From Tigriopus japonicus (Eukaryota; Arthropoda; Copepoda; Harpacticoida; Harpacticidae): 64,000 nt of DNA. Location of the stretch: assembly GCA_010645155.1 (NCBI GenBank), contig JAAGOF010000287.1, positions 295,894 through 359,893 of the forward strand, given 5' to 3'. The position numbers and the translations under genes were made by a program. Position 1 is the first letter of the stretch. Each line of letters opens with the position of its first letter. Below, in pieces: positions 703 through 30,363 of this stretch. Below the pieces are notes generated by a model. That model saw only the letters and a list, made by a program, of their open reading frames with translations, was not told where the DNA came from and ran no database searches.

Positions 703-1015
703 ATGTCTTTTGCCAAGGAAGATTTTTATAGTGACTATGACAGTGGTTCAACACTGTCTAAGGTGCCATATGAATCCTCGAAAAGAGTAGATAATGTGGG
801 TGCACTTAGTGGTTATGGCCATTCTGGTTACGGGCAATCCGGATATGGTGGTTCTTATAAACAAGAGTGTTGTCCAATTGTCATAGACAAACTCTGTTTA
901 CTTGCCATCTTATTCGGAGTGGTTGGTGCCACTTTTTTCCTCAATCAAGTGATCCTTATGACTACATTCACTCGCAAACGGAAAAGAAGCCTTTTTAGTG
1001 ACATCTTTTGGATTG
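703..1015 (+). CDS. Variable first exon V1: Gly/Tyr-rich CCP-type membrane module
   Basis: Encodes 104 residues from ATG 703. Residues 1-55 are polar with GYGHSGYG repeats (about 36-50). A CC-P motif follows (56-58), then a hydrophobic helix (about 64-86) ending in a Met, and a polybasic RKRKR (91-95) followed by S. Translation could run on to 1056, but GATTG|GTAAG at 1015/1016 is a strong donor in phase 1, leaving G to form GGT (Gly) with C1 at 29432. No signal peptide is seen. The protein and its upstream DNA are closest to V4, pointing to a recent duplication. The function is unknown; membrane insertion is inferred from hydrophobicity. Confidence 0.8.
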
Positions 1016-1761
1016 GTAAGATCATCTTGAAACCACTTGAAAGTCAAAAAAACTAGTGTTTGATTTAGGAGCGGGTAACAATATGTCTTACTTGTACCCA
1101 CTTCGTTCTTGAATCCTTTCGTCAGAAGTGAGGGAAGGAGCACGTTTACCCAAACAAACTCCTTTGCTGATTTCTCCAAGTCCCGTTACAAACAAAAGGT
1201 GTTTGGAGGACTCAGAGCAGATCGTAAAAGAGGTTGTCAAGGCGAGAGGATAACTTGCTAAAGCATCTGCTTGCCTGGATTGCCGTTGCTTCAGGCACAT
1301 TTATCGAGTCCCGTTGTTTTTTCGGACTTTGCACGTCTTGTTAGCGACCATTGTTTCTTGACAGGTTATGGGGAGGCGTTAGTCCCCTAAAAATTTCTCC
1401 TTCTTGTAAACGACCATTTCAGATGGAACCCTTGAAAGGGATAAGTAGGCTCAGTAATATTTTCAAGGACTGACGGAAGTTTGTTTCATTGAATGGATGA
1501 TGTGCACCATCCAACCATTTTTGCTATTTAACTTTCAATCAATGACTTGAAGCGGAAATACCCTTTTTTGAGGGATAAAAGGAAACTAATGGCTTGCAAT
1601 TTATCATGTAGCTTGCTATAATGTACGAACATAGCTATCTTTTCAAAATCCTGCGTAAGGTTACTGTAAGCTTCTTAGGAAATTTTGCATTTAATTGTAA
1701 TTTGCATTATTTTGTCGTTCGTAAAAACGGTAAAAACCCTCTCCTGCGCAAGTTTTACACG

Positions 1762-2056
1762 CAAATGTCGGTCACTCAACCTTCTAAGAAAAGGGCGCAA
1801 GCTACTCTGCTTGTGTCGGTCACTCAACCTTATTTGGCTTTTTCGCGAAACTCTCGTCCAAAAGTCGGTTGCTCAACGTAGAGTCCGAGAGATTCTTTAG
1901 CTCAACCTAAATTGCACGAAACGCAAGCTTTCAGTGAACATGTCGGTCACGCAACCTTGTTCGGAAAGAGCGCAAATTTTCCCTGTATTTTGTCGGTCAC
2001 TCAACCTTCGACGCAGGTTGCGCAAATTTTCTATGAAAATGTCGGTCACGCAACCT
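1762..2056. repeat. About 50-bp minisatellite with GTCGGTCACTCAACCT core
   Basis: Core copies start at 1767, 1815, 1864 (degenerate), 1942, 1992 and 2041, so the spacing is 48-50 bp except for one 78-bp step. Each core is commonly followed by a GCGCAA-T-rich stretch. Degenerate cores continue at about 2140, 2235 and 2330, and two more lie at 109 and 182 upstream of V1. No reading frame is conserved across the units. The array separates V1 from V2; a role as boundary or regulatory DNA is speculation. Confidence 0.75.
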
Positions 2057-2569
2057 TACTCGGAAAATGTTAAAGTTTTTCGTATTTTTGTTATTCATTA
2101 AATATAATTTGGATGAATTAGTGCCTTTTGACATTTTTTGTCGGTCCAAGTGCTCGGTTCCTATTTTCTGTTTCATATAACTATTTTTTAGAAGAAGTCT
2201 ATCACTTAAGCTCATTTGTATAATGAATAAGTTTTGTCGGTTACCCGACTTAATTTGGCAAAACACAAGTATACAATTACTATATCGGGTTACTTTATCT
2301 TGATACAACGCAATTCGATCTCCGTGAATGTCAGACACGCAACCTTTGGACATTGATCGTCCTAGATTTGAGAGCAATGGATAGATGCTTGATTGGAGTG
2401 GCATCCTCTGAAGTACGGATCATGATCAAAAATATTACTTCTAATTTGAAATGGATATGGTTGACTTGATGGCTTGTCATAAATGATGGGATCTTACTTT
2501 CATGCCAAAATTCAAATCAGTTCAGTTTAGATCTCAACAAGACACGACATCGTTTCCAATGTGCTAGCT

Positions 2570-3140
2570 ATGAATAATAAAACCGTGTACAGACACTTCA
2601 AAAAGGCCTCGGAAATCAGAGGCCTTGGTCGAATCGACCAACCTGAAGTGAATTTACCCGATTTTAGTGAGGTGTCAGTGGAAAACATTCAAAATTTGAT
2701 CAAGACCTCTTCATCCATAAAGTCTAAAGACTCGGCATCCATTCGAAGCAGTCCTCAAATGTATTATCACACAAAGTGGGATCCAGACGAGTATTCAGAT
2801 TACTATTACGACGCAAATAGCTTGAGCTCAAAATATCCAGTGGCGCCCCCTTTCCAGCAATTTGAGCCAAAGGGGAATGTTTACTCCAATCGCCGAGTCA
2901 CCTATGATTATGACTATGAAGATTACTTCCACGGCTATTCCAGCACTGGTTCCAAAGACTTTCCAAAGTGCTGCCCTTCTGTGTTGGCCACCAAGTCACT
3001 TTTTGCCATATTTGCGGTTATGGCTGCGGCTGCTTACTTCCTAAACATTGTCATAACTATGAATTTGCCACGCCGAAGACGGAAAAGGCATGCAATCTTC
3101 TCATCCAGCCAATTATCTTTCTTCCATTTCTTTTGGTCAG
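2570..3140 (+). CDS. Variable first exon V2: long acidic-Tyr ectodomain membrane module
   Basis: Encodes 190 residues from ATG 2570. The frame opens slightly upstream at a GTG, but ATG is the natural start. The N-terminal 150 residues are polar, with clusters of Tyr and Asp/Glu (YSDYYYD and YDYDYEDYF types) like tyrosine-sulfation sites. The membrane module is KCCPSVL, an Ala-rich helix, then PRRRRKR followed by H. The donor TCAG|GTACG at 3140/3141 is phase 1. V2 is more diverged from V1 than V4 is. Function unknown. Confidence 0.75.
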
Positions 3141-3602
3141 GTACGACGACATCAACGTTACTTTAGAGCCATTAGCGATTTAAATCAAGGCGACGAATGA
3201 TGCAAGGAACAGTTAGCTAGCTAGTGTAGGATCATATCCCGCTCAAATACGTCTGTAATGGGCATTGAAGTGATGTTGTTCATGGGTGCGAATCGCAACT
3301 TTTCAATCCATGACGACGTTCTAGGGCTCAAGAGGCACCCTCAAAGCGCAACATTTCGAGAACTCGCCATTATCAGCTGCAACGCTATGATGGATGGTCG
3401 TGAGTCGTTCTCCCGTTTTCCCCGTTGGTTTGACAAGTTTACTGTATTGAGAGAAGCAAAGGAGGCTCGCATGTGAGTGAATTGGAGAGTCGTAGAAGCG
3501 TGGCAGCAGTCTCCGTGACAAGAGCTCACCACCTTTCGTTCGCGGAAAAGAGAAATTGTCTGAAATGTGTGCTGACAAATTGTTGTGTCTTTTGACGTTA
3601 TA

Positions 3603-4446
3603 ATGCGAACGATACCTACGAGTTTCATCCAACAAAGTGTCCCTGGTTCATATTACCCCCGGTCAAACTTGAGTTTAGGGGATTTGGCAGACTCCAAAGA
3701 GGATCAATCGATCTATCAAGAGTTTTACGGACCGAATTATAAGCACCGGACACGTGAAGTGAGCTTCCCACGTTCTAATGTGGCCAAATCAGCTGATTTT
3801 CCTGAGGCAAATAGTGACTTTGCTAGTAACTCATTGAACTTTGGGGAAAAGGACACACGGTCTTATCATAATGGAGTGAAGGACTCGATCCAAGCCCGAG
3901 TCAATCCATCCGGTCATCGTGGGTATTCATATCTAGTTGAGGACCCTGAACCTAAGATTTATGGTCATAAACAGGCCTGGCATTACGATTCAAGTGAGCG
4001 GCGTCAGGAAAGTTCTCCTCATCGGAGACCTGATTATAAACGGAAACACAAGTATCAAAACCGCCATCAATCAAATGGCCAACACCATCGATCAAATGGC
4101 TTCCATCGCCATCGGCCAGATAGATTTTCCAAACACCGACCAAGTTACAAACGTGATCGACTTCCGGGGTCTGAAGGGGGTTACTCAAGAAGGCCTCCAA
4201 ACACTAACAGACGACTGGATTATGAGCAACATTATGGGCAGTTTGGTTCAGGACACAAAAGTAAACATTGTTGCCAAAAAGTGTTCGAAACAGAATGGTT
4301 TCTGGCGTTATTGGCCGTTATTGGGGTGGGTACCATCATCGTTGCCCGTGCAATAGCAGCCAATCTAAGGAAGAAGCGATCCTTCAACACTTTTGATTGG
4401 TGCCTTCAGGGCTGTGATTTCTCCCTCACGGAATATGTGCTTTCAG
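3603..4446 (+). CDS. Variable first exon V3: long His/Arg/Ser-rich divergent module
   Basis: Encodes 281 residues from ATG 3603, the longest CCP-group exon. The first 220 residues are strongly polar, with a His/Arg/Asn/Ser-rich tract (HRRPDYKRKHKYQNRHQS type) around residues 140-205. The module is HCCQKVFETEW, a helix with IGVGTIIVA, then only LRKKR followed by S. CCP is changed to CCQ and the polybasic stretch is short, so this is the most aberrant member of the 5' group. The exon end TTTCAG|GTAAAG at 4446/4447 keeps phase 1, arguing that it is still used. Confidence 0.7.
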
Positions 4447-4841: not shown

Positions 4842-5154
4842 ATGTCTTTGTCAAAGACATCTTTATATAGTGACTATGAAAAAGATTCACTGCGATCATT
4901 CGTGCCATATCAGGCTTCAAAACGATCCGACACTTCTGCGGCATTAAGTGGGTATGGACACTCTGGATATGGGCATTCCGGATATGGAGACTCTTACAAA
5001 GAAGAGTGTTGTCCACTAGTGATTGATACGTTGTGTTTGATCGCTATTATAGCTTCAACACTTGCAGCCTCTGCATTTCTAAATCGAGTGATCCAAAGGA
5101 CTGATTTGATTAACGGAAGGAAAAAAAGAGACTTACCTTCCATCGTCATGAGCG
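4842..5154 (+). CDS. Variable first exon V4: GYGHSGYG/CCP membrane module
   Basis: Encodes 104 residues, exactly the length of V1, from ATG 4842. The opening MSLSKTSLYSDYE parallels MSFAKEDFYSDYD of V1. GYGHSGYGHSGYG repeats precede EECCPLVIDTLC, a helix containing AIIASTLAASAFLN, and NGRKKR followed by D. The donor AGCG|GTAAGC at 5154/5155 is phase 1. The DNA before the ATG (4729-4841) shares an AGAGAAAGTGGAA-like stretch and the GTCTAGTTGTGAA leader with V1, so promoter and exon were duplicated together. Confidence 0.8.
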
Positions 5155-5730: not shown

Positions 5731-6073
5731 ATGGATACCATAAACAAATTGGCATCCAATGTGCACAACCAGTACCTAGCATATCCACAGGAAGTGTCCA
5801 GAGGGTACGGAGACGATTATGTCACTGGTCCAGCCAAATCGGACGCCTATGGTGCTCTAAGTGGTTACGGATATGGTCACTCGGGATATGGGCATTCTGG
5901 ACATGGCGGAGGCTCATATAAGGAAAAGTGTTGTCCCTTGGTCATAGACACCTTGTGTGTGCTCGCTATCTTGGGCGCAATTGCTGCTGCCACTTTGTTT
6001 CTAAACCCACTGATTGTGATGAATTTAGGGAAACGGCGAAGGAGAAGAGACCTAACCTCGAGTCTGTTTAACG
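5731..6073 (+). CDS. Variable first exon V5: GYGHSGYG/CCP membrane module
   Basis: Encodes 114 residues from ATG 5731. Residues about 40-65 are Gly/Tyr/His-rich, then KCCPLVIDTLC, a strongly hydrophobic helix (LAILGAIAAATLFLN), MNLGKRRRRR followed by D, and a short tail ending in LFN. The donor ACG|GTGAGA at 6073/6074 is phase 1. Reading through would add about 58 unrelated residues, which I treat as intron. Function unknown. Confidence 0.8.
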
Positions 6074-6924: not shown

Positions 6925-7216
6925 ATGGTTTTCGGTAAATCACCTTCAAAGTTGGTTTCACCGAGAAATATTCAAAGATTGAATGGCGTGTTGGACAGTT
7001 TTGGAGGGTTAAGTGGGTACGGTTATGAAGAGCATTGTTGTCCGTTAGTGATCGATCCCTTGTGCTTCATTATTATTTTGGGGTCGGTGGCCGCAGCCTC
7101 GTTGTTCTTGGGCAATCTTATTGATGTGGCCATATCCAAGAGAAGACGTAAACGTGCAGCAACAGCAAGCATGCAACTTTTGCCGAAGCTTTGGCTAGAT
7201 ATCCCGTTAGTTCTGG
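6925..7216 (+). CDS. Variable first exon V6: short CCP membrane module
   Basis: Encodes 97 residues from ATG 6925; the frame opens only about 30 bases earlier, after a TAG at 6892. The Gly/Tyr part is reduced to LSGYGY. HCCPLVIDPLC, a helix (IIILGSVAAASLFLG) and SKRRRKR followed by A complete the module. The donor CTGG|GTAAGC at 7216/7217 is phase 1. A poly-G/T tract at 7320-7336 follows in the spacer. Confidence 0.7.
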
Positions 7217-8599: not shown

Positions 8600-9008
8600 A
8601 TGAGTCTCTTTAGTGTTGGTTCCAACCGTTACGAGTCCTACGCTTCCTATGATGACCTGGACTCTTATGGCAATGTCGGCCATAGTAACTTGGATGACTT
8701 GAGTGACTTGAGCTTGAACGAGTTGGATAAACTTCGGGATGAATTGGCGACCAGGAAATCTGATACAGCCGCAGCTCTGAGTGGTTATGGACATTCTGGC
8801 TACGGACATTCTGGCTATGGACACAGTACAAAGCATGGAGGTTACAAAGAAGAGTGTTGTCCACTTGTGATTGACACGTTGTGTTTGCTGGTTATTCTTG
8901 GGTCAATCATTGGTGCCGCCGCGTTTTTGAATCAAGTTATCCTTATGACCACTATTCCCCGAAGAAAGCGATCTGCTATGACAGGTCTTGGTGATCTACT
9001 TGAAAAAG
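8600..9008 (+). CDS. Variable first exon V7: GYGHSGYG/CCP membrane module
   Basis: Encodes 136 residues from ATG 8600. The first 55 residues are Asp/Leu/Ser-rich (DLSDLSLNELDKL type, possibly helical). Three GYGHS repeats follow, then EECCPLVIDTLC, a helix (VILGSIIGAAAFLN), IPRRKR followed by S, and a short tail ending LEK. The donor AAAAAG|GTAAAT at 9008/9009 is phase 1, only two codons before an in-frame stop, so the coding part ends close to the splice site. Confidence 0.8.
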
Positions 9009-9870: not shown

Positions 9871-10318
9871 ATGACAACCTTCTATTCCGGGCATAAGCCC
9901 CCGGGAAAGGCCAAAAATCCCAGGAGTGACACGTACAGTGCGCCTACTCAAGGCTACGACTACTATGACCCAGACTATAATAATAGCCCGTACACAACGG
10001 CCTTAGTCAAAAGGACAAACAGCAGAAATTCCTACAGAGATACGACAGCTGTCCGATCAACGGATGGGTATGGTGCCAATTCGGACGGTAGTTTCAGTGG
10101 CTATGGACATGGTGGAGGTTATGGCCATGGCCATGGGCACAAGTGCTGCCCTCTTGTGATTGATGCCTTGTGTTTGGCTGCCATTTTGGGTGCTTTGGCC
10201 GGAGCCACATTATTTCTGGCCAATTTGATTGCCATGAGTTTGCGTAGGAGAAAGAGACGGGATCTCAATGTGATTGAGCCGTTTAATATGGTGCGCGTGT
10301 GGCAGATCATTTCCATAG
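9871..10318 (+). CDS. Variable first exon V8: GYGHGHG/CCP membrane module
   Basis: Encodes 149 residues from ATG 9871; the frame opens earlier without an ATG. The N-terminus contains YDYYDPDYNN and a GYGHGGGYGHGHGH tract just before KCCPLVIDALC. The helix AAILGALAGATLFL is nearly the same as in V10. The basic motif is RRRKRR followed by D. The donor CATAG|GTAAAA at 10318/10319 is phase 1. V8 and V10 are closest relatives though V9 lies between them. Confidence 0.8.
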
Positions 10319-11147: not shown

Positions 11148-11403
11148 ATGTATTCATCCTCTAGTGCTTATGGAGATCATGGCTATGGTGGTTATCACAG
11201 TAACAACTACGACGATTGCTGCCCCCTGGTGATCGATGAGCTAAGTTTGAAGACTGTTCTCGGCGCAACAGCCTTGGGGTCCCTCTTTCTATTCAACACG
11301 ATTTGTAGGAACATTGCTAATAACAGCAACTTTTTTGATTGTCTCCGGAACATTGGTCGACGACGAAGGAAACGGGATCTGACCAATGCGTCGCTTTTGA
11401 ATG
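11148..11403 (+). CDS. Variable first exon V9: short CCP membrane module
   Basis: Encodes 85 residues from ATG 11148. A short Ser/Tyr/Gly segment precedes DDCCPLVIDELS. The helix (TVLGATALGSLFLF) is followed by an unusual Asn/Cys-containing stretch before GRRRRKR and D. The exon ends AATG|GTTAGC at 11403/11404: phase is 1 as elsewhere, but GTTAGC is a weaker donor than the GTAAG/GTAGG of its neighbours. Usage may be low, or the exon may be decaying. Confidence 0.65.
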
Positions 11404-12643: not shown

Positions 12644-13070
12644 ATGGCTGAGTCGGCTCTGACCATGAAGGCTGTAGCTAGCAATTACTTTACATACTCA
12701 GTGCCATCTACGGGTTCGATATCCCGGAGAAATTCAGAAATTACCGGGAGTGAGGGCAATTATGGGGGTTACAGTGGTCATGGCTACGGCCATTCAGGGT
12801 ACGGACATGGTCACAGTGGTGGTGGCTACGGTCACAAGGAAAAGTGTTGTCCTTTGGTCATCGATGCGTTGTGTTTAGCTGCCATATTAGGTGCCTTGGC
12901 TGGGGCCACTGTTTTTCTCAATACAGCCATAACTATGAACTTAGGTCGAAGAAGGCGGAGGAAACGAGAAGTCTTGAACCCCCCAGACACAGACAATGAC
13001 TCCTCAAAAGACAGTGCACTCACAATGGGAAGTAGCCTCCATTGGCAACTCATGGAACTTTTTATTAGAG
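12644..13070 (+). CDS. Variable first exon V10: GYGHSGYG/CCP membrane module
   Basis: Encodes 142 residues from ATG 12644 (a second in-frame Met lies 7 codons later). A Gly/His/Tyr tract (GHGYGHSGYGHGHSGGGYGH) leads into KCCPLVIDALC. The helix AAILGALAGATVFLN, MNLGRRRRRKR and E follow. An unusually long tail of about 40 residues leads to the donor ATTAGAG|GTATGT at 13070/13071, phase 1. Confidence 0.8.
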
Positions 13071-13899: not shown

Positions 13900-14196
13900 C
13901 ACTTGGTGCTTATGGTGGTCATGGCGGTCATGGCGGTCATGGAGGGTATGGAAGTGGTCATGGAAGTGGTCACGGTAGTGGTCATGGCCATGGCAAGTTA
14001 GATTGTTGTCCAATTGTGGTGGATCCCTTGACCTTCTCCGCTTTACTCGGATTTATTGGTGCGGCTACCGCTTTCTTGAACACCCTGATCACGATGAATA
14101 TCATGGCCAGGAAGAAAAGGTCTATCCGAACAGCCCCAATAGCCACAGAGCACCATAATAATGGCACTTTATCATTTTTCGAATGGTTTTCGCAGG
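13900..14196 (+). CDS. Variable first exon V11 (5' end lost in gap)
   Basis: Only the last 98 codons are present and the start is in the N run. The visible part begins with a (GGH)n/(SGH)n repeat, then LDCCPIVVDPLTFSALLGF, a helix with IGAATAFLN, MNIMARKKR and S, and an approximately 25-residue tail ending FSQ. The donor CAGG|GTAAGA at 14196/14197 is phase 1. The helix and basic segment are closest to V14. Confidence 0.75.
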
Positions 14197-17040: not shown

Positions 17041-17314
17041 ATGGCTGAAAGTGATTTGGATCTAGTGGCTGAAGATAGTGCACGTGTAATTTATATAACC
17101 TCTCATGAAGAAGAGTGTTGTAACGGGGTGGTCGACCCTTTGACGTTCATCACTATCCTTGGCATCATTGCAGCCATTGCAGCCATTTTGAGGCAAGCTG
17201 TAATCGATAACGTGAATCAAATCCAAGTTGGGTTTCTGACCAATGCTCCTAACAAAAATGCATTAATTGCGGCTCTTCTGAGCGGAGGCAGTGTTACTAG
17301 AAGACAACCTCGAG
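17041..17314 (+). CDS. Variable first exon V15: ECCNGVVDPL membrane module
   Basis: Encodes 91 residues from ATG 17041. The N-terminus is short and acidic and lacks the Gly/Tyr repeats. EECCNGVVDPLTF replaces CCP; the helix TILGIIAAIAAIL ends in RQAVIDNV, the form shared by V15-V18. The basic motif is displaced and weak (TRRQPRG at the very end). The donor CGAG|GTAGGG at 17314/17315 is phase 1. This exon marks the switch from the M-N-RRRKR type to the RQVVIDNI type. Confidence 0.7.
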
Positions 17315-18096: not shown

Positions 18097-18343
18097 ATGT
18101 CTCGTGCCATTGCTACTATTGACTCGGCTGGATCCTTATCTGGTCATGGGGGAGGTTATGCCTACGTCTCCAAGGATAAAGAGTGCTGTCCTCCAGTGAT
18201 TGATCCCTTGACCCTTCTAACGGTTCTTGGAGCCATTGCTGCAGTAACTGTAGGTCTGAGACAAGTCGTCATTGACAATATCCCAATTGGCAGAAAGAAG
18301 CGAGCCGCTGATGTGTTCATCTCCATGTTGAACCCTCTAAGAG
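18097..18343 (+). CDS. Variable first exon V16: ECCPPVIDPL membrane module
   Basis: Encodes 82 residues from ATG 18097. A short Ser/Gly N-terminus includes GHGGGYAYVSKDKE, then ECCPPVIDPLTLLTVLGAIAAV, RQVVIDNI and GRKKR followed by A. The donor AAGAG|GTAGGT at 18343/18344 is phase 1. It is almost the same as V17 from GGGYAYVSKD onward, so the two are recent duplicates. Confidence 0.8.
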
Positions 18344-19112: not shown

Positions 19113-19371
19113 ATGTCTGCTGTCACCCAAGTGTACACTGCCACCAACATAGCCCGATCTGGACACGGAGGAGGCCATGGTGGGGGATATGCTTATGTGT
19201 CTAAGGATCAAGAGTGTTGCCCTCCAGTGATTGATCCACTAACCTTGTTGACTGTCTTGGGGGCAATTGCCGCCGTGACTATTGGTCTAAGACAAGTCGT
19301 TATTGACAACATCCCTGGCAGAAAGAAGCGAAGCACGGAGATGTTGTTCTCCATCTTGGACTCGTTAAGAG
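19113..19371 (+). CDS. Variable first exon V17: ECCPPVIDPL membrane module
   Basis: Encodes 86 residues from ATG 19113. It differs from V16 mainly in its first 20 residues, where GHGGGHGGGYAY extends the Gly/His tract. The helix, RQVVIDNI and GRKKR followed by S are conserved. The donor AAGAG|GTAGGT at 19371/19372 is phase 1, and an in-frame stop lies shortly after. Confidence 0.8.
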
Positions 19372-19556: not shown

Positions 19557-19833
19557 ATGGCCCCTCAACGTTATAGAATCGGGTTTGAACAAGATCTTAT
19601 TGCTACGGAATCTCAAGGTTCCTCTCAAACAGTGGTAGCCCCTAAGATTGGACAGGATGACGGTCAGTGTTGTGTAGGCAAAGTGAGCGCTTTCAGTGTG
19701 TTTGCCACCATGGCCACGGTGGTTGCGGTCACTTTGGTTCTCAGACAAATGGTACTCGATAACATTCAAAAGCGGAGAAAGCGAAGGGGCATCGTTCAAA
19801 TACACCTTGGGAATCGTCAACACTTAATGGCAG
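19557..19833 (+). CDS. Variable first exon V18: QCCVGKV membrane module
   Basis: Encodes 92 residues from ATG 19557. The Gly/Tyr tract is missing. GQCCVGKVSAFSVF begins the helix, which continues MATVVAVTLVLRQMVLDNI, clearly related to V16/V17 despite loss of CCP. The basic motif KRRKRR is followed by G. The donor GCAG|GTAAAC at 19833/19834 is phase 1. Confidence 0.75.
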
Positions 19834-20027: not shown

Positions 20028-20325
20028 ATGTCATCCTTTGAGCAACACTTAGAGCCTTCAGTGGAAGTGGCCGAAAGGCTTTCACCACTTGCTAGAACTA
20101 AGCGAGCTGATGCATATCATCATGCATACCCGGAGTATTGTCCCGAGGGGATTCCGGTAGAACAAGCCTTGTTCGCTATCCTAGCCACATTTGCAGCCGC
20201 GTTTGGGTTTCTTTATACCGCTGTGACAATGCGGCAAGGGCGGCGCCGCAAGCGAAGATCTGAGCACAGTGTTGGTAGTGAGGGATTGGATTGGACCGTT
20301 TGGAGCACTGATTTGTTGTCGGCAA
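20028..20325 (+). CDS. Variable first exon V19: YCPEGIP membrane module
   Basis: Encodes 99 residues from ATG 20028. It belongs with V20 and V21: a PEYCPEGIPVEQALFAIL opening, then FAAAFGFLYTAVTM. The basic motif RRRKRR is followed by S, and a dibasic TKR lies before the helix. It is the only unit whose last nucleotide is A rather than G: GCAA|GTGAGT at 20325/20326, still phase 1, so the junction codon would be AGT (Ser) instead of GGT (Gly). Confidence 0.75.
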
Positions 20326-20655: not shown

Positions 20656-20968
20656 ATGGGTGCGTTCCAGAGAGCTCTTCAGGCTTCTCAGGCTGTAAAT
20701 AGTCAAGCCCTGTCCAGGCAAGTCCGGGCCTCAGACCTCTCGGGAGCCTTGTCTGGCCATGGCTACGCCGAGTATTGCCCCGAAGGCATTCCGGTCGAGC
20801 AAGCACTCTTTGCCATTTTGGCCGCTTTTGCTGCTGCCTTTGGCTTCTTGTTCAGAGCTGTGACTCTGGCCACTGGAGGAAGGAAGCGTCGATCCTTGGC
20901 CGGCGAGACCCAGCAGCTCTCTTGGACGGAGGAGCTGGAATTGCAAGCCCATGATCTTGTCTGGTGGG
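20656..20968 (+). CDS. Variable first exon V20: YCPEGIP membrane module
   Basis: Encodes 104 residues from ATG 20656. A Gln/Ala/Ser-rich N-terminus is followed by LSGHGYAEYCPEGIPVEQ and a helix with AAFAAAFGFLFRAVTL. GGRKRR and S form the basic motif. The tail is acidic and ends VWW. The donor GTGG|GGTAGG reads GGG|GTAGGT at 20968/20969, phase 1. The sequence is locally GC-richer than its neighbours. Confidence 0.8.
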
Positions 20969-21161: not shown

Positions 21162-21486
21162 ATGTCTGGCAGCTCTGGGTTTTACTATCATCATCTTTTT
21201 GAGAATGCCACCCAATCTCGAAGCATTCGAGCCGTTGACTCTGTTGGCGGATATTCCTCTGGATATGGGGAGTACTGCCCTGAGGGAATTCCCATTGAGC
21301 AGGCGCTGTTTGGACTTCTCGCAGCCTTTGCAGCTTCTTTTGGGTTTTTGTTTCGGGCTGTCACCATGATTACTGCCCCGCCTCCAATGGGCGGGGGTCG
21401 ATCTGAGCTGAGGCAAGAACCAACACTATTTAGCAGCAGCTTTGCAGAGGATTTACAAGTCAGAGTTGCTGATTTGATGTGGTGGG
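21162..21486 (+). CDS. Variable first exon V21: YCPEGIP module without polybasic site
   Basis: Encodes 108 residues from ATG 21162. GEYCPEGIPIEQALFGLL and FAASFGFLFRAVTMI make the helix, like V20. The usual polybasic motif is replaced by a Pro/Gly stretch (PPPMGGGRSELR), so a convertase site here is doubtful. The tail ends LMWW and the donor GGGG|GTAGGT at 21486/21487 is phase 1. Confidence 0.75.
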
Positions 21487-21595: not shown

Positions 21596-21821
21596 ATGGA
21601 TTCGATGACATTGCACAGGACTAAACGGAGGAGTGGCAAAGGTGGCAGCAATAATTGCGGACAGATCTGGATAGATGGCGAGGCCCTTATCAGCGGCCTT
21701 GCTTTGGCAGGTCTGTTTATTGCCTTAGCTTTGAACGATGCCATCATGAACAACGGTAAACGACGACGACGAAAACGACGAGAAGTTCAGTCGGAACATC
21801 TATTTCCAAACCTAGCCATAG
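21596..21821 (+). CDS. Variable first exon V22: short, divergent membrane module
   Basis: Encodes 75 residues from ATG 21596; an earlier frame opening at a GTG is ignored. It begins MDSMTLHRTKRRS, then NNCGQIWIDGEALI and a helix ISGLALAGLFIALALN. The polybasic KRRRRKRR is followed by E. CCP is reduced to NC. The donor CATAG|GTACTG at 21821/21822 is phase 1. It is the shortest unit. Confidence 0.7.
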
Positions 21822-22083: not shown

Positions 22084-23080
22084 ATGGCAAGCCGCCCTGA
22101 TTTATATCTAAATACCTTAGATCTGGCACGGATCTCAACACTAGCTTCAACCACGACTTCCCCAATCACAACCGACGATGCGATAACTGACTCAAACATT
22201 TACAAGCTCAGCCTCCAAAAGTTCAAGGCCAGTACGAAAGTGGGCCCCATTCCAGTTACAGCACGGCCTCAAGGTAGACCCTTGAAGTACACCACCCGAT
22301 CTAGACTCAACTCAAGCCATTTTCAACCGTCCCAGGTTGATCTTTTAACCACAAAGCAACCACTTCCCGCTTTTCGAGCAAATAAAAGGCCCTTATCCTT
22401 GCGTAAATATAAGCAATCAAGATTAGTGTCTGGAAAGCCACGCTCGACAAAAAAGCCTTTGTATTACCCACAAGTGGTTGTGATGCAACAAAGAGGCCAT
22501 ATTGAGGAGCAGGGCGAACCAATTCAATATGAGGATCTACCCTCAGCGACCTTGGCTCCGAAAAGTAGTGGCGTTGATACTGTTGAGGCCAAAGCTGATC
22601 CAATCAGCCATTATGACGACGATTATTACTACTACCATGAAGAGCGTTCAGCCTACAAATTCAATGGTCCAACTCATAAAGAGGGGAGCCCAGTTAATAG
22701 AGACGATAACAAAGACCATGACTATAAAGGCTATGCAGAAGGTCCTGCTCATTTTCCCAATTACGCTTATCAAGACTACTATTACGAAGGTGGCGATCAC
22801 CATGAAAGCAACTTTGACTATGGGCACCACCTTGGGTATGATTCTCATGGCGGGAGCTCCAGCAAAAATAGCTACATGGACATGGGATTGGGAACTGTAG
22901 AGGTTTGTCCAGATCTGATTTTGGCCCTGGCGGCTGCTTTTGGAGCTGCGGCATTCCTCGCCCTCTTTCAAACCCTAACGGCTGCTGCCTCTCGACGGAG
23001 GCGTCAAAATGGCTCTCTAAGTAGTATTTCGTCCTCACCACTATCTTCTGGATCATTACTGTGGGACTATTTGAACTATG
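22084..23080 (+). CDS. Variable first exon V23: long Thr/Ser then Tyr/His/Asp-rich module
   Basis: Encodes 332 residues, the longest unit, from ATG 22084. Residues 1-165 are Thr/Ser/Lys/Arg-rich and possibly O-glycosylated. Residues 175-270 carry dense Tyr/Asp/His clusters (YDDDYYYYHEE, QDYYYEGGDHHES). The helix starts VEVCPDLILAL and runs through FGAAAFLALFQTL; the basic motif is SRRRRQ. The donor CTATG|GTAGGA at 23080/23081 is phase 1. Its CPDL helix links it to B1-B6 just downstream, suggesting local duplication. Confidence 0.75.
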
Positions 23081-23796: not shown

Positions 23797-23807
23797 CATT
23801 TTCTTGC
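23797..23807 (+). promoter_or_regulatory. Selector sequence of B1
   Basis: CATTTTCTTGC, 11 bases complementary to the docking core. It is followed by TTCTAAC, a good branch-point sequence, and the acceptor GAATTTAG at 23828. Confidence 0.7.
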
Positions 23808-23828
23808 TTCTAACAATATTGAATTTAG

Positions 23829-24112
23829 GAGAACGGGCTATAAGAAAAAGCAAAGCTATGCCCCCTTAGTAGGGAGCGAGGCCTTCACCAGCACCAAGAA
23901 GGTCAAGTTCGGTATTGTCGAAGACAATTGTGACGGGTTTTCATTGGAGATCTGCCCAGATCTTTTGTTAGCCGGCATCGCCGTGTTCTCGGCTGGGGCT
24001 TTCTTGGCCCTCTTCATGGCAATCACGGCCGGAATGCGCCGAAAGAAGCGAAGTGTGTCAGCCAGCGGACCAGCCCATTTGTACGATTTTGGCCAGGACC
24101 TTCTTTGGCTAG
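23829..24112 (+). CDS. Mutually exclusive exon B1: CPDL membrane module
   Basis: 284 nt between AATTTAG and CTAG|GTACTT. It needs two upstream bases (phase 2 in, phase 1 out) and has no in-frame ATG. Encodes a basic start, KKVKFGIVEDNCDG, EICPDLLLAG, a helix with FSAGAFLALFMAITA, and MRRKKR followed by S; the tail ends LLWL. An alternative acceptor at CCCTTAG (23872) would give another phase. The KFGIVxDNCDG block is shared with B3 and B4. Confidence 0.7.
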
Positions 24113-24303
24113 GTACTTAACCGCATGGCTTGCACAATTTTTTTTTATGAGGAAATGCTTGCTATTTGTTTTATAGCCTTGCGGGATATCCAGTGTACAG
24201 AAGCTTGCCAGCCTGCCACCTGCGAGTTCCCTCGTCGACAACATCGAGTGAAAGCATTAGGAATCAGGGCTTTTACATAAAGTACATAAACGTTTGAACA
24301 TAG

Positions 24304-24315
24304 CATTTTCTTGCA
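24304..24315 (+). promoter_or_regulatory. Selector sequence of B2
   Basis: CATTTTCTTGCA, 12 bases complementary to the docking site. It lies only a few bases from the phase-compatible acceptor GCAAAG (24318), closer than in the other B exons, so pairing might mask that acceptor. TTGACAG at 24329 is the alternative acceptor but changes phase. Confidence 0.65.
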
Positions 24316-24318
24316 AAG

Positions 24319-24611
24319 GGGGTTGACAGTACCTCTACGGACTGATCGAAGCTCAAGGAAGCTTCGACCTCTGCCTCACCAAATAAGGGGAAGCTTTGGA
24401 GGAGGCAAGGATGTCAAATATGGAATTGTGAATGACCATTGTGAAGGTGTGGCTGTAGATATTCACCCGGATACTTTGCTCCAAGGTCTCGCATTCATAA
24501 CTGTGGGCGCCTTTGCCGCCTTATTCTTTGCTGTTACCAATGGGCGACGGAAGAGGAAGCGGAAACGTAGCTTGAGCCCCAATTCGTGGTGGCAAGATCT
24601 GGCACATTTAG
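24319..24611 (+). CDS. Mutually exclusive exon B2: HPDT membrane module
   Basis: 293 nt if the acceptor is GCAAAG at 24318; phase 2 in, phase 1 out, no in-frame ATG. Encodes a basic Arg/Leu/Pro start, GGKDVKYGIVNDHCEG, a helix with LAFITVGAFAALFFAVT, and RRKRKRKR followed by S. CPDL is changed to HPDT, losing the second Cys. The donor TTTAG|GTAGGA at 24611/24612. The acceptor is the least certain of the group. Confidence 0.6.
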
Positions 24612-24631
24612 GTAGGAGGACAGCTTACTTT

Positions 24632-24645
24632 AACATTTTCTTGCA
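24632..24645 (+). promoter_or_regulatory. Selector sequence of B3
   Basis: AACATTTTCTTGCA, 14 bases fully complementary to the docking site (TGCAAGAAAATGTT), the longest perfect match. It lies only 20 bases after the B2 donor; the B2-B3 intron is the shortest in the cluster (72 bases). Confidence 0.75.
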
Positions 24646-24683
24646 ATGTGTTTGCCAATTCAACTATGCTTCTTGCGTGCTAG

Positions 24684-24940
24684 TAATGAGATTATGGTAG
24701 CCAGTGCTGGCAGCGGTGACAAGAAAGATGTAAAATTTGGGATAGTAGATGACAATTGTGATGGGTTCGATGTAGAGATCTGCCCTGACCTCCTTGTAGC
24801 CGGTTTGGCTGCTTTCGGTGCAGCGGCCTTTGCCGCTCTCTATACGGCCATTACAATGAAAGGTCGAAAACGAAGGAGGCGATCAGCCCTGTATGACCCC
24901 AAGTCGTCATGGGATAGCTTCCAAGACTTGTTTCACATAG
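24684..24940 (+). CDS. Mutually exclusive exon B3: CPDL membrane module
   Basis: 257 nt from GTGCTAG to CATAG|GTATAT; phase 2 in, phase 1 out. Encodes SAGSGDKKDVKFGIVDDNCDG, EICPDLLVAGLAAF, a helix GAAAFAALYTAIT, and GRKRRRR followed by S; the tail ends LFHI. B3, B4 and B6 have exactly the same length. An internal in-frame ATG (24693) exists, but its relatives lack one. Confidence 0.75.
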
Positions 24941-25252
24941 GTATATTTCCAAACTAGTCTTGATTTTTCTGTTTCCACCGGAGGGATCGGTGGGTCTTCA
25001 ATTCTATCATTCCGGCAAATTTGCAATGCACCACATGTTTGGGATTTTCTTTTTAAGTTTCAACAATTGCAATCACCCGCCAATCACTTGCTACTTTATT
25101 CAGGATCACTGGCAATGCATCTAGTGACAAAAATGAGATAGTGTGCCATATTTGTCCGCACCTAAGTTTCCAACTAATTTTAAGTCTAATCAAAAATGAG
25201 CAGATGGATGATCAACCATTTTCTTGCAATGACATTACTTTGATGTCTCAAG
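24941..25252. other. B3-B4 intron with selector
   Basis: A 312-base non-coding stretch. Only the B4 selector (25217-25228) and the acceptor region are recognisable; no exon-like frame is seen. Confidence 0.5.
25217..25228 (+). promoter_or_regulatory. Selector sequence of B4
   Basis: CATTTTCTTGCA, 12 bases complementary to the docking site, followed by ATGACATTAC and the acceptor TCTCAAG at 25252. Confidence 0.75.
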
Positions 25253-25509
25253 GTATGAAACGTTGGTAGCGAGTGCAGGAAGTGACAACAAAGACGTCAA
25301 ATTTGGAATCGTTGACGACAATTGTGATGGGTTTGACCTCGAGATTTGCCCGGACCTTATTATTGCTGGTCTTGCGCTATTTGGTGCTGCCGCCTTTGTG
25401 GCCCTCTTTACTGCCATTACCATGAAGGGCAGAAGACGAAAGAGAAGTAGTCAGGACCTGCCATCATCTGAGCGAACATGGGACTCGTTTAAAGATCTCT
25501 ATTGGATAG
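25253..25509 (+). CDS. Mutually exclusive exon B4: CPDL membrane module
   Basis: 257 nt from GTCTCAAG to GATAG|GTATTT; phase 2 in, phase 1 out. There is no in-frame ATG, and the frame upstream closes at a TGA, so it cannot be a first exon. Encodes SAGSDNKDVKFGIVDDNCDG, EICPDLIIAGLALF, GAAAFVALFTAIT, and GRRRKR followed by S; the tail ends LYWI. Nearest relative is B3. Confidence 0.8.
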
Positions 25510-25785
25510 GTATTTGGTTGTTTATGTATTGACTTCCTCCTCCTCCTCCTGGATTGGAACCTTCGTTATTTAACAACTCATCCATTTAACTACCTTAGCT
25601 CAGCTGTTGTCAAAGGGATCCTAATAAAAGCATAACTAACCCCAGTTGTATTGGGTAGTTGAGTTGGGTACGTTACTCTTTTGGCCATCACTCATCAAGG
25701 AAGGAGCTTTCAAGTTTATGTGTTGATTGTCAGTTATCTATGGATCAAAGCGTTTGACCTTCTTGTTTTTTCCCCTAGCCATTGG

Positions 25786-25798
25786 CGTTTTCTTGCAC
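25786..25798 (+). promoter_or_regulatory. Selector sequence of B5 (one G-U wobble)
   Basis: CGTTTTCTTGCAC pairs with docking GTGCAAGAAAATG over 13 bases, with one G-U pair where the others have A. Pairing is extended by the final C, so the change keeps the duplex. Confidence 0.7.
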
Positions 25799-25843
25799 GC
25801 TTATAACCCCTCCTATTGTGGTCTTTTAAAGTATTCCTATCAG

Positions 25844-26115
25844 TAGTAGTCGTGCCCTTAATGTAGATCCTATTGCAAGCCAATCCTCAACTAAGATGGG
25901 CAAGATTCATCCTGCTATGGACGCATGCTTTACCGCAGATATCTGCCCAGATATTCTCCTGGGGGCAATCGCCAGTTTTGCCGCAGCTGCCTTCTTGGCC
26001 CTTTATCAAGCCATCACTGCTATGTCCAAAAAAAGGCGGAAGAAACGAAGTGTTGATTCTAAAGCAACCTTCCATGACTGGATTGTATACCATCTCAAAG
26101 CTGCTATAGTAATTG
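25844..26115 (+). CDS. Mutually exclusive exon B5: CPDI membrane module
   Basis: 272 nt from TCCTATCAG (a good acceptor with a C/T tract) to AATTG|GTATGA; phase 2 in, phase 1 out. Encodes a Ser/Ala start, DACFTADICPDILLG, a helix IASFAAAAFLALYQAIT, and KKRRKKR followed by S; the tail ends AAIVI. An ATG at 25896 is in frame, so use as a first exon cannot be excluded, but the selector and acceptor argue for internal use. Confidence 0.7.
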
Positions 26116-26352
26116 GTATGATAACTTGGCCTAAGTGCCCTTGCAAAGACCAGCCAAAACATTGCGACGATCTGTAGATAACAGGCTGACACATAGGTCA
26201 CACCCATGACAACAAACATGTAAGCTCCAATGCTCCAGGGTTCTCATTGCCTTCCATGTCGTCTTTCCGTTAGGTTCTTGCTTCAAGGAGCTTTAGTCTT
26301 CTTCAAGATTTATGTGTATATATTGCTAACCCATCCGACTAACTCTATTTCA

Positions 26353-26366
26353 TATTTTCTTGCACT
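26353..26366 (+). promoter_or_regulatory. Selector sequence of B6 (one G-U wobble)
   Basis: TATTTTCTTGCACT pairs with docking AGTGCAAGAAAATG over 14 bases with a terminal G-U. CTAAC immediately after GCA is a consensus branch point. Confidence 0.75.
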
Positions 26367-26399
26367 AACAACGACTGTATATAACTTTGGTGAAAATAG

Positions 26400-26656
26400 C
26401 AACACTGACGTCAAATATGGGATTGTACCCGCAACCCAAGACGAGAACTGCTTCGAAGTTCCAATCTGCCCGGACCTACTTGTAGCGGCTTTTGGGGCAA
26501 TTGGAGCTGCCCTGACTTTGGCTTTGTATATGGCTCTGACCATGCTGCCAAGACGACGCCGACGAGACTTACGAGCTGCAGAGGGCGCTCAAGAGACCAT
26601 ATTAGATATTCCTCCTCCTTCAATCTCTGTCCTTCTCTCTGACATTCTGTTCTCGG
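26400..26656 (+). CDS. Mutually exclusive exon B6: CPDL membrane module
   Basis: 257 nt from GAAAATAG to CTCGG|GTAGGC; phase 2 in, phase 1 out, with no in-frame ATG near the acceptor. Encodes NTDVKYGIV, ENCFEVPICPDLLVAAF, a helix GAIGAALTLALYMALT, and PRRRRR followed by D; the tail ends ILFS. No other acceptor would allow a phase-1 donor, which supports the phase-2 donor for L. Confidence 0.75.
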
Positions 26657-27038: not shown

Positions 27039-27498
27039 ATGACTACTACTCGTAACCAAAAAGCACCCAGCTCTTCAACTCGCACAAAAAGCAAGCACCA
27101 CGATCTTTTGAGTAGCGAGAGTGGGGTTGACTACTATGATTACTACGACTACCAACCATCCGTGCGAACTTCGGTTGGTCGTCGACAACTCTTCACTTCA
27201 AAGGCTGGTCTTGGGGGTGGCAAGGCTGCCACGCCTGCCAAGACTTCTCTTTTGGGGTCCTTTAACTCTCATTATGGAAGCTATGCTGGTGGCTACAACC
27301 CGCATGACAAGTGCGACAATGGTATCAGCATTGGTTTGCTCCTCACCACTCTGTTGGGAATCGGTGTGATGTTCTTCACCCTCTTCACTAAGATCACAAT
27401 GGCCGTCATGCGTCGTAAAAAGCGTAGTCTTGAGCACAACGCAGAAACCGACCCGTTATCTATCATTTTGGATCACTTTCCAGACTTTGTTCTTGGTG
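27039..27498 (+). CDS. Variable first exon V24: KCDNGIS membrane module
   Basis: Encodes 153 residues from ATG 27039. Tyr/Asp cluster VDYYDYYDYQ at about residues 30-39, then GRRQLF and a Gly/Ala/Lys stretch. The helix differs from all 5' units: DKCDNGISIGLLLTTLLGIGVMFFTLF, TKITM, then RRKKR followed by S. The donor TTGGTG|GTATGC at 27498/27499 is phase 1. GTCACAGTTAAAGATC lies 62 bases upstream of the ATG. Confidence 0.8.
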
Positions 27499-27732: not shown

Positions 27733-27759
27733 AAGTCCAATTTGTGTACATAGCTGAAA

Positions 27760-28216
27760 ATGTCTGCTCAGGAGCAGAGAACCGAAGGAGCCGATGACTT
27801 AATGGCCAGTGAGTCCGTTGATCAAGGCCGTAGTTTTGACTACTACGACTATGACTACGGGCGTTATGCGGCTCCAGCTCTGGCTAGACGACAGTTGTAT
27901 GTAGGAAAGAGCAAGCTTCCAAGCAAATCAATCAAGAAACCTGCCTCGTCAAGTTCGGATATGTTGGGCTCATTCTCCAGTCTCTTTGGGAGCTATTCCG
28001 GGGGTTACCATGACAAGTGTGACAATGGGATAAGTCTGGGCTTGCTCCTCACCACACTTTTGGGGATAGGAGTGATGTTTTTCGCCCTGTTTACCAAAAT
28101 CACTATGGGCAGAAGGAAGAAGAGGAGCTTGACGAGCAGCCCTGCTGGTTTGGAAGAGGAATCTGACTTTGATGTGTACACATTGTTGGACAAGTTCACA
28201 GACATTGTCAATGGGG
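27760..28216 (+). CDS. Variable first exon V25: KCDNGIS membrane module
   Basis: Encodes 152 residues from ATG 27760. Parallel to V24 along its whole length: FDYYDYDYGRY, ARRQLYVGKSK, SYSGGYHDKCDNGISLGLLL, a helix to FALFTKITM, GRRKKR followed by S, and an acidic tail ending IVNG. The donor GGGG|GTAAAC at 28216/28217 is phase 1. A tandem duplicate of V24. Confidence 0.8.
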
Positions 28217-28488: not shown

Positions 28489-29182
28489 ATGTCTTCCTCG
28501 TCGTTATCCTTATCAGCATCCCCATCATCATCTCTCCAAGCTCAGCATCGATACACTAGCTTGGAGATGCCCACGGAGTCTTCTGATATGACTGCCGCCT
28601 ATGACAGCATGTTACGGAGCCGTAGGCAGAATTATCGAGCAAGATTGGGAGCGGCCAGTCTGCAAGGGTCGTCTTTGGGCAAGGGCTCATTGTCAACCAC
28701 GACCTCGGATTATGATTACAGTCAAAATGAGCTGGAATATCCGGACGTCGAAGAGACCCAGCCTGCTCCTGGAGCAGGGCTAACTTTGCGTCAAAAGCTC
28801 TTCTTGAAGCGACGCTTGAGACGTCAACAGCTGTTGCGACTCCAGCAAATTGAGGCCTTGCGGGCTGCGGCGTCTGATTATGATTACGGGGATGAGACTT
28901 CCCGTATTGGGGTGACGGGTTCAGGATCAGCATACAATGAACCCGAGGTCCAATATGTGTATAAATCCAAGTCGTCTTGCTACACTGGCATTAACCTTGT
29001 GGTTGCCTTTGCCACTGCTGCTGCTGCAGTCTTGGCCTTTTACTTTATCTTTGTGCAATTGACCATGGGCACCAATAAGCGCAGACGTTCATTTGGCAAG
29101 TCTTCCAAAAAGGTTAATGGCACTGAAGTTGACGAGGACGAGGACATGTCTAATATTGGTCTAAACAAACTGTTCTGGATTG
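28489..29182 (+). CDS. Variable first exon V26, proximal to the constant exons
   Basis: Encodes 231 residues from ATG 28489. Ser-rich start, two acidic-Tyr clusters (SDYDYSQNELEYPDVEE and SDYDYGDE) and a Leu/Arg/Gln-rich, probably helical stretch between them (KLFLKRRLRRQQLLRLQQ). The helix SSCYTGINLVVAFATAAAAVL is followed by TNKRRR and S; the tail ends NKLFWI. The donor GATTG|GTACGT at 29182/29183 is phase 1, 249 bases from C1. As the nearest unit it may be the default or the ancestral first exon. Confidence 0.8.
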
Positions 29183-29635: not shown

Positions 29636-29694
29636 GTAAGTTTTAACGGAAAGTGCTCCTAGAGAACTCTGTATTAACAAACCTATTTAATTAG

Positions 29695-29929
29695 ACTCGA
29701 CTTTGACTATCGACAATTCCACTGTCTCCACCAATGTCACTGAGCACGCCATCTCCAAGCGATCATTGGAGGATGAGGATGCCGAGTTCCTTGAAGAGAC
29801 TGCCGAGGATGATGAGTTTGTCAAGAGCCTGTCTGGAGAGTCCAAGTGCCGCACCAAGTTCTGGAGATGCGTTGGCAAGGTCGCCAAGGGATCCATCCAC
29901 TACATGCAAGAGCCCGGCGGTATCTCCGG
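29695..29929 (+). CDS. Constant exon C2: glycosylation sequons and Cys pair
   Basis: 235 nt from TTTAATTAG to CTCCGG|GTAAGA; phase 1 in, phase 2 out. The junction forms Asn, giving three N-glycosylation sequons close together (NST, NST, NVT). A dibasic ISKR|SLEDED follows, then a Glu/Asp-rich stretch and CRTKFWRCVGKVAKG with two Cys. Sequons and Cys imply that this part is lumenal or extracellular. I do not recognise the domain. Confidence 0.8.
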
Positions 29930-29993
29930 GTAAGAAAAAGAACCACTTTTCCCCCCTTAGAAACGCCAATCAACCAACTTCTTCCCTTTGCAG

Positions 29994-30075
29994 TGCCTTC
30001 CAAAAGACCATGTTCCGTATGGCTTTCCACGGTGGATTCGGCAATGTCTGGAACGCACTCATGACCATCCCTGAG
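29994..30075 (+). CDS. Constant exon C3
   Basis: 82 nt from CCTTTGCAG to CTGAG|GTAAGT; phase 2 in, phase 0 out. Encodes AFQKTMFRMAFHGGFGNVWN and LMTIPE, an amphipathic-looking segment without charge clusters. Introns on both sides are under 70 bases, typical of compact constitutive splicing. Confidence 0.8.
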
Positions 30076-30144
30076 GTAAGTGGTAACTGACTCTGTCAAG
30101 AAAAATTGGCTTTATTTACAACACAACTCTTGCTCGTTTAACAG

Positions 30145-30363
30145 GCTCGTCGTGTCAAGAGATGTTTGAACGCTCAAGAGGAATGCCTGAGTTACGAAGC
30201 CCTTCGCTTGGAATTGGACGCCGGTTCAGAATTCGCTGATGAGCACACCAACAAGCAACGCCTCATTGTCAACCCAGAACTGGTCGAGAACCAAGATACG
30301 AGCGATGGCTCTGAGCAATTCAGTCCCGAAGTTCAAGCTGCTCTCGACAACAATGAGATTTAA
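30145..30363 (+). CDS. Constant exon C4 with stop codon
   Basis: 219 nt from GTTTAACAG to TAA 30361-30363; phase 0 in. Begins ARRVKR, a convertase-like site, then CLNAQEECLSYEALRLELD with two Cys, and an acidic C-terminus ending LDNNEI. With C1-C3 it gives a constant part of 245 residues. Joined to V1 the predicted protein is 350 residues. A poly(A) signal AATAAA lies at 31327-31332. Confidence 0.8.
   Translation, partial: ARRVKRCLNAQEECLSYEALRLELDAGSEFADEHTNKQRLIVNPELVENQDTSDGSEQFSPEVQAALDNNEI

What the first reader, a model, noticed from the sequence alone, without database searches (positions are those of the whole stretch)
703..30363. A protocadherin-like cluster: at least 32 alternative membrane-module exons upstream of one constant region
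Every variable exon ends in a GT donor in the same phase (1), and 31 of 32 leave G, which forms Gly with GT at the start of C1. Only one set of downstream exons exists, at the far right end, and it encodes no membrane helix. Reading frames, lengths and the helix-plus-polybasic architecture are kept in all units despite strong divergence elsewhere. Known loci with this layout are clustered protocadherins and UGT1A; I know of none for this kind of small membrane protein. The system could give one secreted or surface product in many cell- or stage-specific versions.
Basis: partly seen in the sequence, partly recalled or inferred. Interest (0 to 1): 0.96.

Follow-up and report, generated by a model that had tools for sequence, protein, structure and literature searches.

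The report
Copepod many-front-ends, one-tail gene cluster
A copepod gene carries 32 alternative front exons, each coding a membrane segment, ahead of one shared set of end exons, so each message likely joins one front to the same end and would anchor one predicted-secreted protein in many different ways.

Summary
In a Tigriopus-like genome, 32 units (one hydrophobic helix, usually an R-X-K/R-R motif, a phase-1 donor) lie in tandem upstream of a single four-exon constant region. All 32 donors are phase 1; 31 of 32 leave G. The cluster is larger than reported: 14 further candidate units lie up to about 34 kb left of the window, and a paralogous cluster (6 units plus its own constant region) sits on another contig.

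Joining is supported by proteins of relatives. NCBI's three Tigriopus californicus isoforms of one gene are three different units on an identical constant part. Among database proteins (other organisms unnamed) with at least 98% identical constant parts, 12 of 16 testable groups carry two or more different modules, one of them four. No RNA from this species was available.

N-glycosylation sequons are three-fold enriched in the constant linker and absent from its cysteine core, so the constant part is probably extracellular and the variable part the cytosolic tail, anchor and cleavage site: the reverse of protocadherins. Charge distribution argues against this. Per-unit promoters are only weakly supported. 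No paper on it appeared in the listings seen. Biological role is unknown.

The parts
703..1015 (+). unit 1: ATG, helix at 868, KRKR, phase-1 donor
2570..3140 (+). unit 2: helix at 2999, RRRRKR
3603..4446 (+). unit 3: helix at 4299, RKKR; orthologue of T. californicus isoform X2 front (70.5% id)
4842..5154 (+). unit 4
5731..6073 (+). unit 5
6925..7216 (+). unit 6
8600..9008 (+). unit 7
9871..10318 (+). unit 8
11148..11403 (+). unit 9 (atypical donor GTTAGC)
12644..13070 (+). unit 10
13902..14196 (+). unit 11, 5' part lost in the N run that precedes 13902
14970..15285 (+). unit 12
15702..16137 (+). unit 13
16447..16846 (+). unit 14 (start uncertain; open frame from 16447)
17041..17314 (+). unit 15 (no R-X-K/R-R after the helix)
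18097..18343 (+). unit 16
19113..19371 (+). unit 17
19557..19833 (+). unit 18
20028..20325 (+). unit 19 (leaves A: Ser at the junction)
20656..20968 (+). unit 20 (CPEGIPVE class, best match of many homologous modules)
21162..21486 (+). unit 21 (no R-X-K/R-R after the helix)
21596..21821 (+). unit 22
22084..23080 (+). unit 23 (long front)
23829..24112 (+). unit 24, probable internal-type exon (no in-frame ATG; acceptor read by eye)
24319..24611 (+). unit 25, probable internal-type exon (no in-frame ATG)
24684..24940 (+). unit 26, probable internal-type exon
25253..25509 (+). unit 27, probable internal-type exon (no in-frame ATG)
25896..26115 (+). unit 28 (ATG 25896; acceptor-like site at 25832)
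26400..26656 (+). unit 29, probable internal-type exon (in-frame ATG only at 26230)
23799..26363 (+). six TTTTCTTGC elements (starting at 23799, 24306, 24636, 25219, 25788, 26355), one before each of units 24-29 and nowhere else on the + strand
27039..27498 (+). unit 30
27760..28216 (+). unit 31; orthologue of T. californicus isoform X3 front (91.4% id)
28489..29182 (+). unit 32, next to C1
29432..29635 (+). constant exon C1 (begins Gly-Leu-Glu-Glu-Phe-Glu with the incoming G)
29695..29929 (+). constant exon C2: sequon-rich linker, SKR site, first C-x6-C
29994..30075 (+). constant exon C3
30145..30363 (+). constant exon C4: second C-x6-C, stop

Best explanation
This is a variable/constant gene in which 32 membrane-module exons stand in tandem before one four-exon constant region, and each mRNA likely joins a single module to the shared constant exons through a phase-1 splice. 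Step 1 (shown): tandem units with one donor phase and one constant region. Step 2 (shown as proteins in relatives, inferred here): one-of-N joining at the same glycine. Step 3 (inferred, weakly supported): most units carry their own promoter and start codon, so choice of start decides the isoform; units 24-29 probably form a nested set of alternative internal exons. Step 4 (inferred, about 0.65): the protein is a type II membrane precursor; the variable exon gives cytosolic tail, helix and a furin-type site, the constant region gives a glycosylated, disulphide-bonded extracellular domain with a second dibasic site, so cleavage would release nearly the same product from many different anchors. 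Biological role: not known.
For: Anatomy and chance control. Single constant region plus one 45% paralogue; matches of two module queries lie only in this cluster (11 of 11, 19 of 19). T. californicus isoforms X1-X3 of LOC131891730 are three different fronts on an identical constant part, 94.7% identical to this one; the X1 front's orthologue lies 49.6 kb from C1 here, beyond the window's left edge. Of 124 homologues, 110 hold the C1 start (Gly there in 109, Ala in 1); of 108 long constants, 16 groups at 98% identity or more have two or more module-bearing members, and 12 of these carry different modules (7 of 9 at 100%). Module classes of this cluster recur in the homologues. A six-unit paralogous cluster repeats the layout. 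Sequons in the linker: 67 against 22.3 expected, 0 of 1000 shuffles; 34 of 45 linkers have one; cysteine domain 0, front tails 11 against 25.0. R-X-K/R-R after the helix in 28 of 32 units and in 80 of 108 parsed linkers, with 22 more dibasic. TCAGT within 110 bp of the ATG in 15 of 36 flanks, reached in 1 of 300 shuffles, without a pyrimidine tract.
Against: No RNA from this species. The short-contig proteins are taken for spliced mRNA only because they read through the constant exons without introns; their DNA was not seen and their organisms are not named. The linker sequons are partly shared by descent, which the shuffles do not model. Promoters: an open k-mer search beat shuffles with nothing; TCAGT was the best of 21 motif-by-range tests; acceptor-like sites near the ATG are common, so 5' leader exons or a distal promoter remain possible. 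Topology: the window units have 66 acidic and 23 basic residues before the helix and 9 and 115 after it, which by the positive-inside rule (recalled) favours the front outside; 11 of 45 linkers have no sequon. Structure models are weak (mean pLDDT 62.7 and 63.2).
Confidence: 0.85

Rival explanations
1. The units are separate small genes, or relics, and only the nearest one or few use the constant region.
For: Unit 32 lies 249 bases from C1 and an unspliced-looking relative (P0047) shows a module of the same class there; 18 AATAAA/ATTAAA hexamers lie on the + strand before C1.
Against: Each unit is open to a donor of the same phase; relatives carry distal-class modules directly on the constant part; the orthologue of the T. 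californicus X1 front lies about 50 kb away. Whether units have 3' exons of their own was not searched for.
Confidence: 0.03
2. One-of-N joining is real, but the choice is made by splicing of transcripts from one or few distal promoters (Dscam-like mutually exclusive exons), or 5' ends are made by spliced-leader trans-splicing.
For: Units 24-29 each follow a TTTTCTTGC element found nowhere else on the + strand and an acceptor-like AG in phase 2, of ordinary score, and 3 of 6 lack an in-frame ATG; good acceptor-like sites lie near many other ATGs; spliced-leader trans-splicing is published for calanoid copepods (PMC4664967, passages).
Against: I could assign 26 of 32 units an in-frame ATG with a stop 3-105 bases upstream; TCAGT sites lack pyrimidine tracts; that paper found no spliced leader in its harpacticoid data, the order of Tigriopus (recalled).
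Confidence: 0.22
3. The topology is protocadherin-like: the variable front is outside the cell and the constant part is cytosolic, with the basic cluster as a stop-transfer anchor.
For: Strong charge asymmetry, basic residues after the helix; no N-terminal signal peptide is evident in the 17 of 32 fronts aligned (by eye).
Against: Sequon enrichment, dibasic sites and four conserved cysteines in the constant part; sequons depleted in the fronts.
Confidence: 0.25

Closest known systems
Chelicerate sDscam (5' tandem variable cassettes)
   Same: Arthropod locus with tandem 5' variable cassettes spliced to constant exons, promoters before cassettes (PMC4835542, passages).
   Different: Immunoglobulin receptor of another family; cassettes of two or more exons; [quoted passage not shown]
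Vertebrate clustered protocadherins
   Same: Tandem variable exons, constant exons at the distal end, one variable exon per transcript (PMC4978886, passages).
   Different: No cadherin domain found; variable exons there encode large ectodomains, here a small tail, helix and cleavage site; the constant part is probably extracellular.
UGT1 cluster
   Same: Tandem variable first exons, each with a specific promoter, and common downstream exons (PMC3325998, start of abstract in the listing).
   Different: An enzyme family; no Pfam match here.
Tigriopus californicus LOC131891730 (uncharacterised)
   Same: Orthologous gene with annotated isoforms.
   Different: Only three isoforms appeared in the protein searches; here 32 units in the window and 14 candidates beyond it are seen.

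Membership tests
variable-first-exon / constant-region gene (architecture class) | tandem homologous exons with a common donor phase upstream of one constant exon set | tested here: met
variable-first-exon / constant-region gene (architecture class) | different variable parts joined to the same constant part in transcripts | tested here: met
   met in relatives at protein level: 12 of 16 groups, T. californicus X1-X3; not testable for this species
variable-first-exon / constant-region gene (architecture class) | promoter before each variable exon | tested here: inconclusive
   TCAGT in 15 of 36 flanks, no k-mer above shuffles, acceptor-like sites also present
clustered protocadherins | cadherin domains in the variable exons | tested here: not met
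   no cadherin match in 5 of 32 units plus the constant region or in 16 homologues
clustered protocadherins | constant exons encode a cytoplasmic domain | tested here: inconclusive
   sequons and dibasic sites argue for the lumen, charge argues for the cytosol
clustered protocadherins | conserved CTCF-bound promoter element (CSE) | not tested
   only an open k-mer search was run
chelicerate sDscam | immunoglobulin and fibronectin domains | tested here: not met
   none in 5 of 32 units plus the constant region or in 16 homologues
UGT1 | UDP-glycosyltransferase domain | tested here: not met
   none in 5 of 32 units plus the constant region or in 16 homologues
furin-processed type II precursors | cleavage at R-X-K/R-R | not testable with these tools
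   the motif is present in 28 of 32 units; cleavage was not tested

The most novel reading that the evidence does not exclude
An ancient diversity locus of copepods that turns the protocadherin logic inside out: some 46 interchangeable cytosolic-tail, anchor and furin-site modules all deliver one constant, glycosylated, secreted domain, with module choice deciding where, when and how that domain is released; module classes have been kept across distant relatives, and the layout exists a second time as a smaller cluster.
Probability: 0.5. Interest if true: 0.92.

Novelty: new variant of a known kind. Interest (0 to 1): 0.85.

Why it matters
Large one-of-N variable/constant loci are few, and the known ones serve cell identity (protocadherins, sDscam) or detoxification (UGT1) (partly recalled). 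One in an arthropod protein family without a Pfam match, with variability probably on the inside and constancy outside, would be a new use of the layout. If the unnamed homologues are copepods, as I infer, it is widespread in some of the sea's most abundant animals. It can be tested with ordinary RNA-seq from Tigriopus.

Tried and rejected

Wider distribution: a region search with one module found only itself among 100 candidates; viral contigs and genome contigs gave no relative. T. californicus is the only species named among the listed hits (one search found 143 and listed 120, so 23 were not seen).

Literature: searches showed no paper on such a locus in the rows listed (20 of 628, 10 of 164, 8 of 79, 8 of 10, 8 of 3,171 and 6 of 103 papers); the locus name gave 0 papers. 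Subscription journals are largely not held.

Motifs: an open k-mer search of 38 flanks found nothing above shuffles. Of seven motifs in three ranges TCAGT was the best, so its significance is modest. A shared upstream exon for units 24-29 was sought; the exon at ATG 23394 offers no good phase-2 donor.

My own errors: the unit 22 donor was mistyped and corrected; unit 29 was entered there without its in-frame ATG at 26230; one search failed on a wrong ATG coordinate for unit 14, which was then left out. Searches used 38 and 36 flanks (28 and 26 from the window, 10 upstream). One search was only a probe for the genome's size.

Rows dropped: 14 of 124 homologues lacked the C1 start pattern and 2 of 110 had constants of 200 aa or less; 34 of the other 108 had no usable module; 1 of 46 non-redundant constants could not be parsed.
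Full report
WHAT IS THERE. The window lies on contig C43 of a 194.85 Mb genome. The constant part is 94.7% identical to that of Tigriopus californicus, so the source is probably another Tigriopus or a close relative (inference). On the + strand of 1-30,400 there are 30 open frames with a hydrophobic segment followed by a basic cluster, against none on + in the rest of the window, 1 and 0 on the minus strands and 0-2 in 20 shuffles; the best G|GT donor is in phase 1 in 28 of 29 scored. All 30 are units; units 15 and 21 lack the basic motif and make 32. Each of the 32 is open to a phase-1 donor and 31 leave G. Donor spacing has a median of 852 bases and module identity among units a median of 33%. 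Four exons follow, C1 29432-29635, C2 29695-29929, C3 29994-30075 and C4 30145-30362 plus the last stop base, coding 246 aa without a hydrophobic helix (highest 19-residue mean 0.57).

THE CLUSTER IS LARGER. A scan of 70 kb to the left found 12 more candidate units from C43:261,531 to 292,932 (two of them, at 277,528 and 278,150, have the same helix), and whole-genome searches added two at 293,538 and 295,234. Of these 14, nine have a well-scored phase-1 donor and two more show one by eye in the printed sequence; three (277,528, 278,150 and 292,932) do not. The matches of two module queries lie only in this cluster, on the + strand: 11 of 11 and 19 of 19. The constant part has one relative elsewhere, on C13 at 45% identity. 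That locus has six units of its own, each with a candidate phase-1 donor, upstream of its own constant exons on the minus strand: the layout exists twice.

EVIDENCE FOR JOINING. Two searches gave 124 proteins (47; 120 of 143 listed; overlapping). Three are NCBI isoforms X1-X3 of one T. californicus gene: identical constant parts with three different fronts. The fronts are orthologous to units 3 and 31 of the window and to the unit at C43:275,524, whose donor is 49.6 kb from C1 here. The organisms of the other hits are not named; I take them for copepods (inference). Where a contig length is listed for them it is 904-2348 bases, and 108 of the 110 that hold the C1 start have more than 200 uninterrupted residues of constant part, so I take most for spliced mRNA; their DNA was not seen. 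The residue at the C1 start is Gly in 109 and Ala in 1 of 110. Of the 108 long constants, 16 groups with at least 98% identical constants have two or more members with a module; in 12 of the 16 the modules differ (under 60% identity), and at 100% identity in 7 of 9. P0048, P0051, P0054 and P0056 share an identical constant part and carry four modules. Random assembly chimaeras would not be expected to break at the same residue.

CONSERVED REPERTOIRE. Scored against 49 modules of this genome, 76 modules of the homologues find different best partners: the CPEGIPVE class (unit 20), CPEGID (C43:290,642), ICPDLIL (unit 28), CCPxVVDP (unit 14), the FLRQAVID class (unit 17), the DCPGIPIALLL class (units 30, 31) and, at low scores, the unit 32 class. 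The FSDGTLFALL class has low, nearly tied scores and no clear partner. One relative, P0047, has a unit-32-class module followed by 32 unrelated residues and then C1, as if an intron were read through: the unit next to C1 seems to be of the same class there.

HOW IT PROBABLY WORKS: CHOICE. I could assign 26 of the 32 units an ATG in frame with the helix, with an in-frame stop 3-105 bases upstream; these units seem to bring their own start. TCAGT, which resembles an arthropod initiator (recalled), occurs within 110 bases of the ATG in 15 of 36 flanks, a number reached in 1 of 300 shuffles, but it was the best of 21 tests. Those sites have no more pyrimidines upstream than background (0.54 and 0.54), so they are not obviously acceptors. 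An open k-mer search found nothing above shuffles. Acceptor-like sites near the ATG are frequent. Own promoters are therefore plausible, not shown. Units 24-29 differ: TTTTCTTGC occurs six times on the + strand of the window, once before each of them and nowhere else (9 matches on both strands, 1.68 expected, 0 of 100 shuffles reach 9), and an AG of ordinary score follows that places the exon in phase 2. Three of the six have no in-frame ATG and unit 29 has one only upstream of that AG. A nested set of alternative internal exons is likely, but the 5' partner was not found. In sDscam both cap-proximal and downstream cassettes can splice to the constant exon (PMC4835542, passages). Spliced-leader trans-splicing occurs in calanoid copepods, but that study found none in harpacticoid data (PMC4664967, passages).

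HOW IT PROBABLY WORKS: PROTEIN. In 45 non-redundant constants, N-X-S/T sequons number 67 in the linker between TWGL and the first C-x6-C against 22.3 expected (0 of 1000 shuffles), 0 in the cysteine domain against 10.1, and 7 and 7 in the remaining two parts against 14.1 and 16.5; 49 fronts hold 11 against 25.0. The sequences are related, which shuffles do not model, so the p-value is too good. Four cysteines are invariant in the 16-sequence alignment. R-X-K/R-R occurs in 80 of 108 parsed linkers, with a plain dibasic in 22 more (the window's own linker has the plain form SKR), and between helix and donor in 28 of 32 window units; counting K at the first place, in 30, followed by Ser in 17. 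Together these point to a constant part in the secretory lumen and a type II precursor cleaved by a furin-like protease. Against this, the window units have 66 acidic and 23 basic residues before the helix and 9 and 115 after it, which by the positive-inside rule would put the front outside. I give the inside-out topology about 0.65. AlphaFold models are low confidence and gave no informative fold match.

COMPARISON. The layout is that of clustered protocadherins (PMC4978886, passages), UGT1 (PMC3325998, start of abstract in the listing) and sDscam. It is a member of none: no cadherin, immunoglobulin or glycosyltransferase domain was found (one search covered 5 of 32 units plus the constant region). 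It differs in protein family, in the small size of the variable module and probably in topology. Unlike the sDscam cassettes, reported as species-specific expansions, several module classes here recur among distant homologues. No paper on it appeared in the rows listed.

VERDICT. Observation confirmed; layout interpretation supported and extended; mechanism of choice and biological role open. A new variant of a known kind.

Noticed in passing
window 16341-16561: An ORF starting at ATG 16341 without a hydrophobic helix, followed in another frame by ..SYGFWIG and a GTAAGC donor at 16562: looks like a decayed unit (by eye).
   Followed up: partly
window 23799-26656: TTTTCTTGC stands before each of units 24-29 and nowhere else on the + strand of the window; it starts 13-48 bases before the first base of the exon set by a phase-2 acceptor-like AG; the common 5' exon was not found.
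   Followed up: partly
G000 C13:1164376-1173114 (minus), loci L023-L024: A second, smaller variable/constant cluster with six units and its own constant exons.
   Followed up: partly
G000 C43:277528 and 278150, locus L016: Two copies of one unit with identical helix, the second with its 5' part in an N run; no good donor was found in either.
   Followed up: no
window 49005-49781 and 58284-58694: Transposase ORF with Pfam HTH_Tnp_Tc3_2 and DDE_3, and a second helix-turn-helix fragment.
   Followed up: partly
window 50757-52760: 667-codon ORF without a Pfam match at E 0.01.
   Followed up: no
window 107-2060: Scattered copies of a tgtcggtcac(t/g)caacctt-like motif (by eye).
   Followed up: no
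window 32731-33490: Multi-exon gene downstream of the constant region that looks DOMON-like by eye; one exon had no Pfam match.
   Followed up: partly
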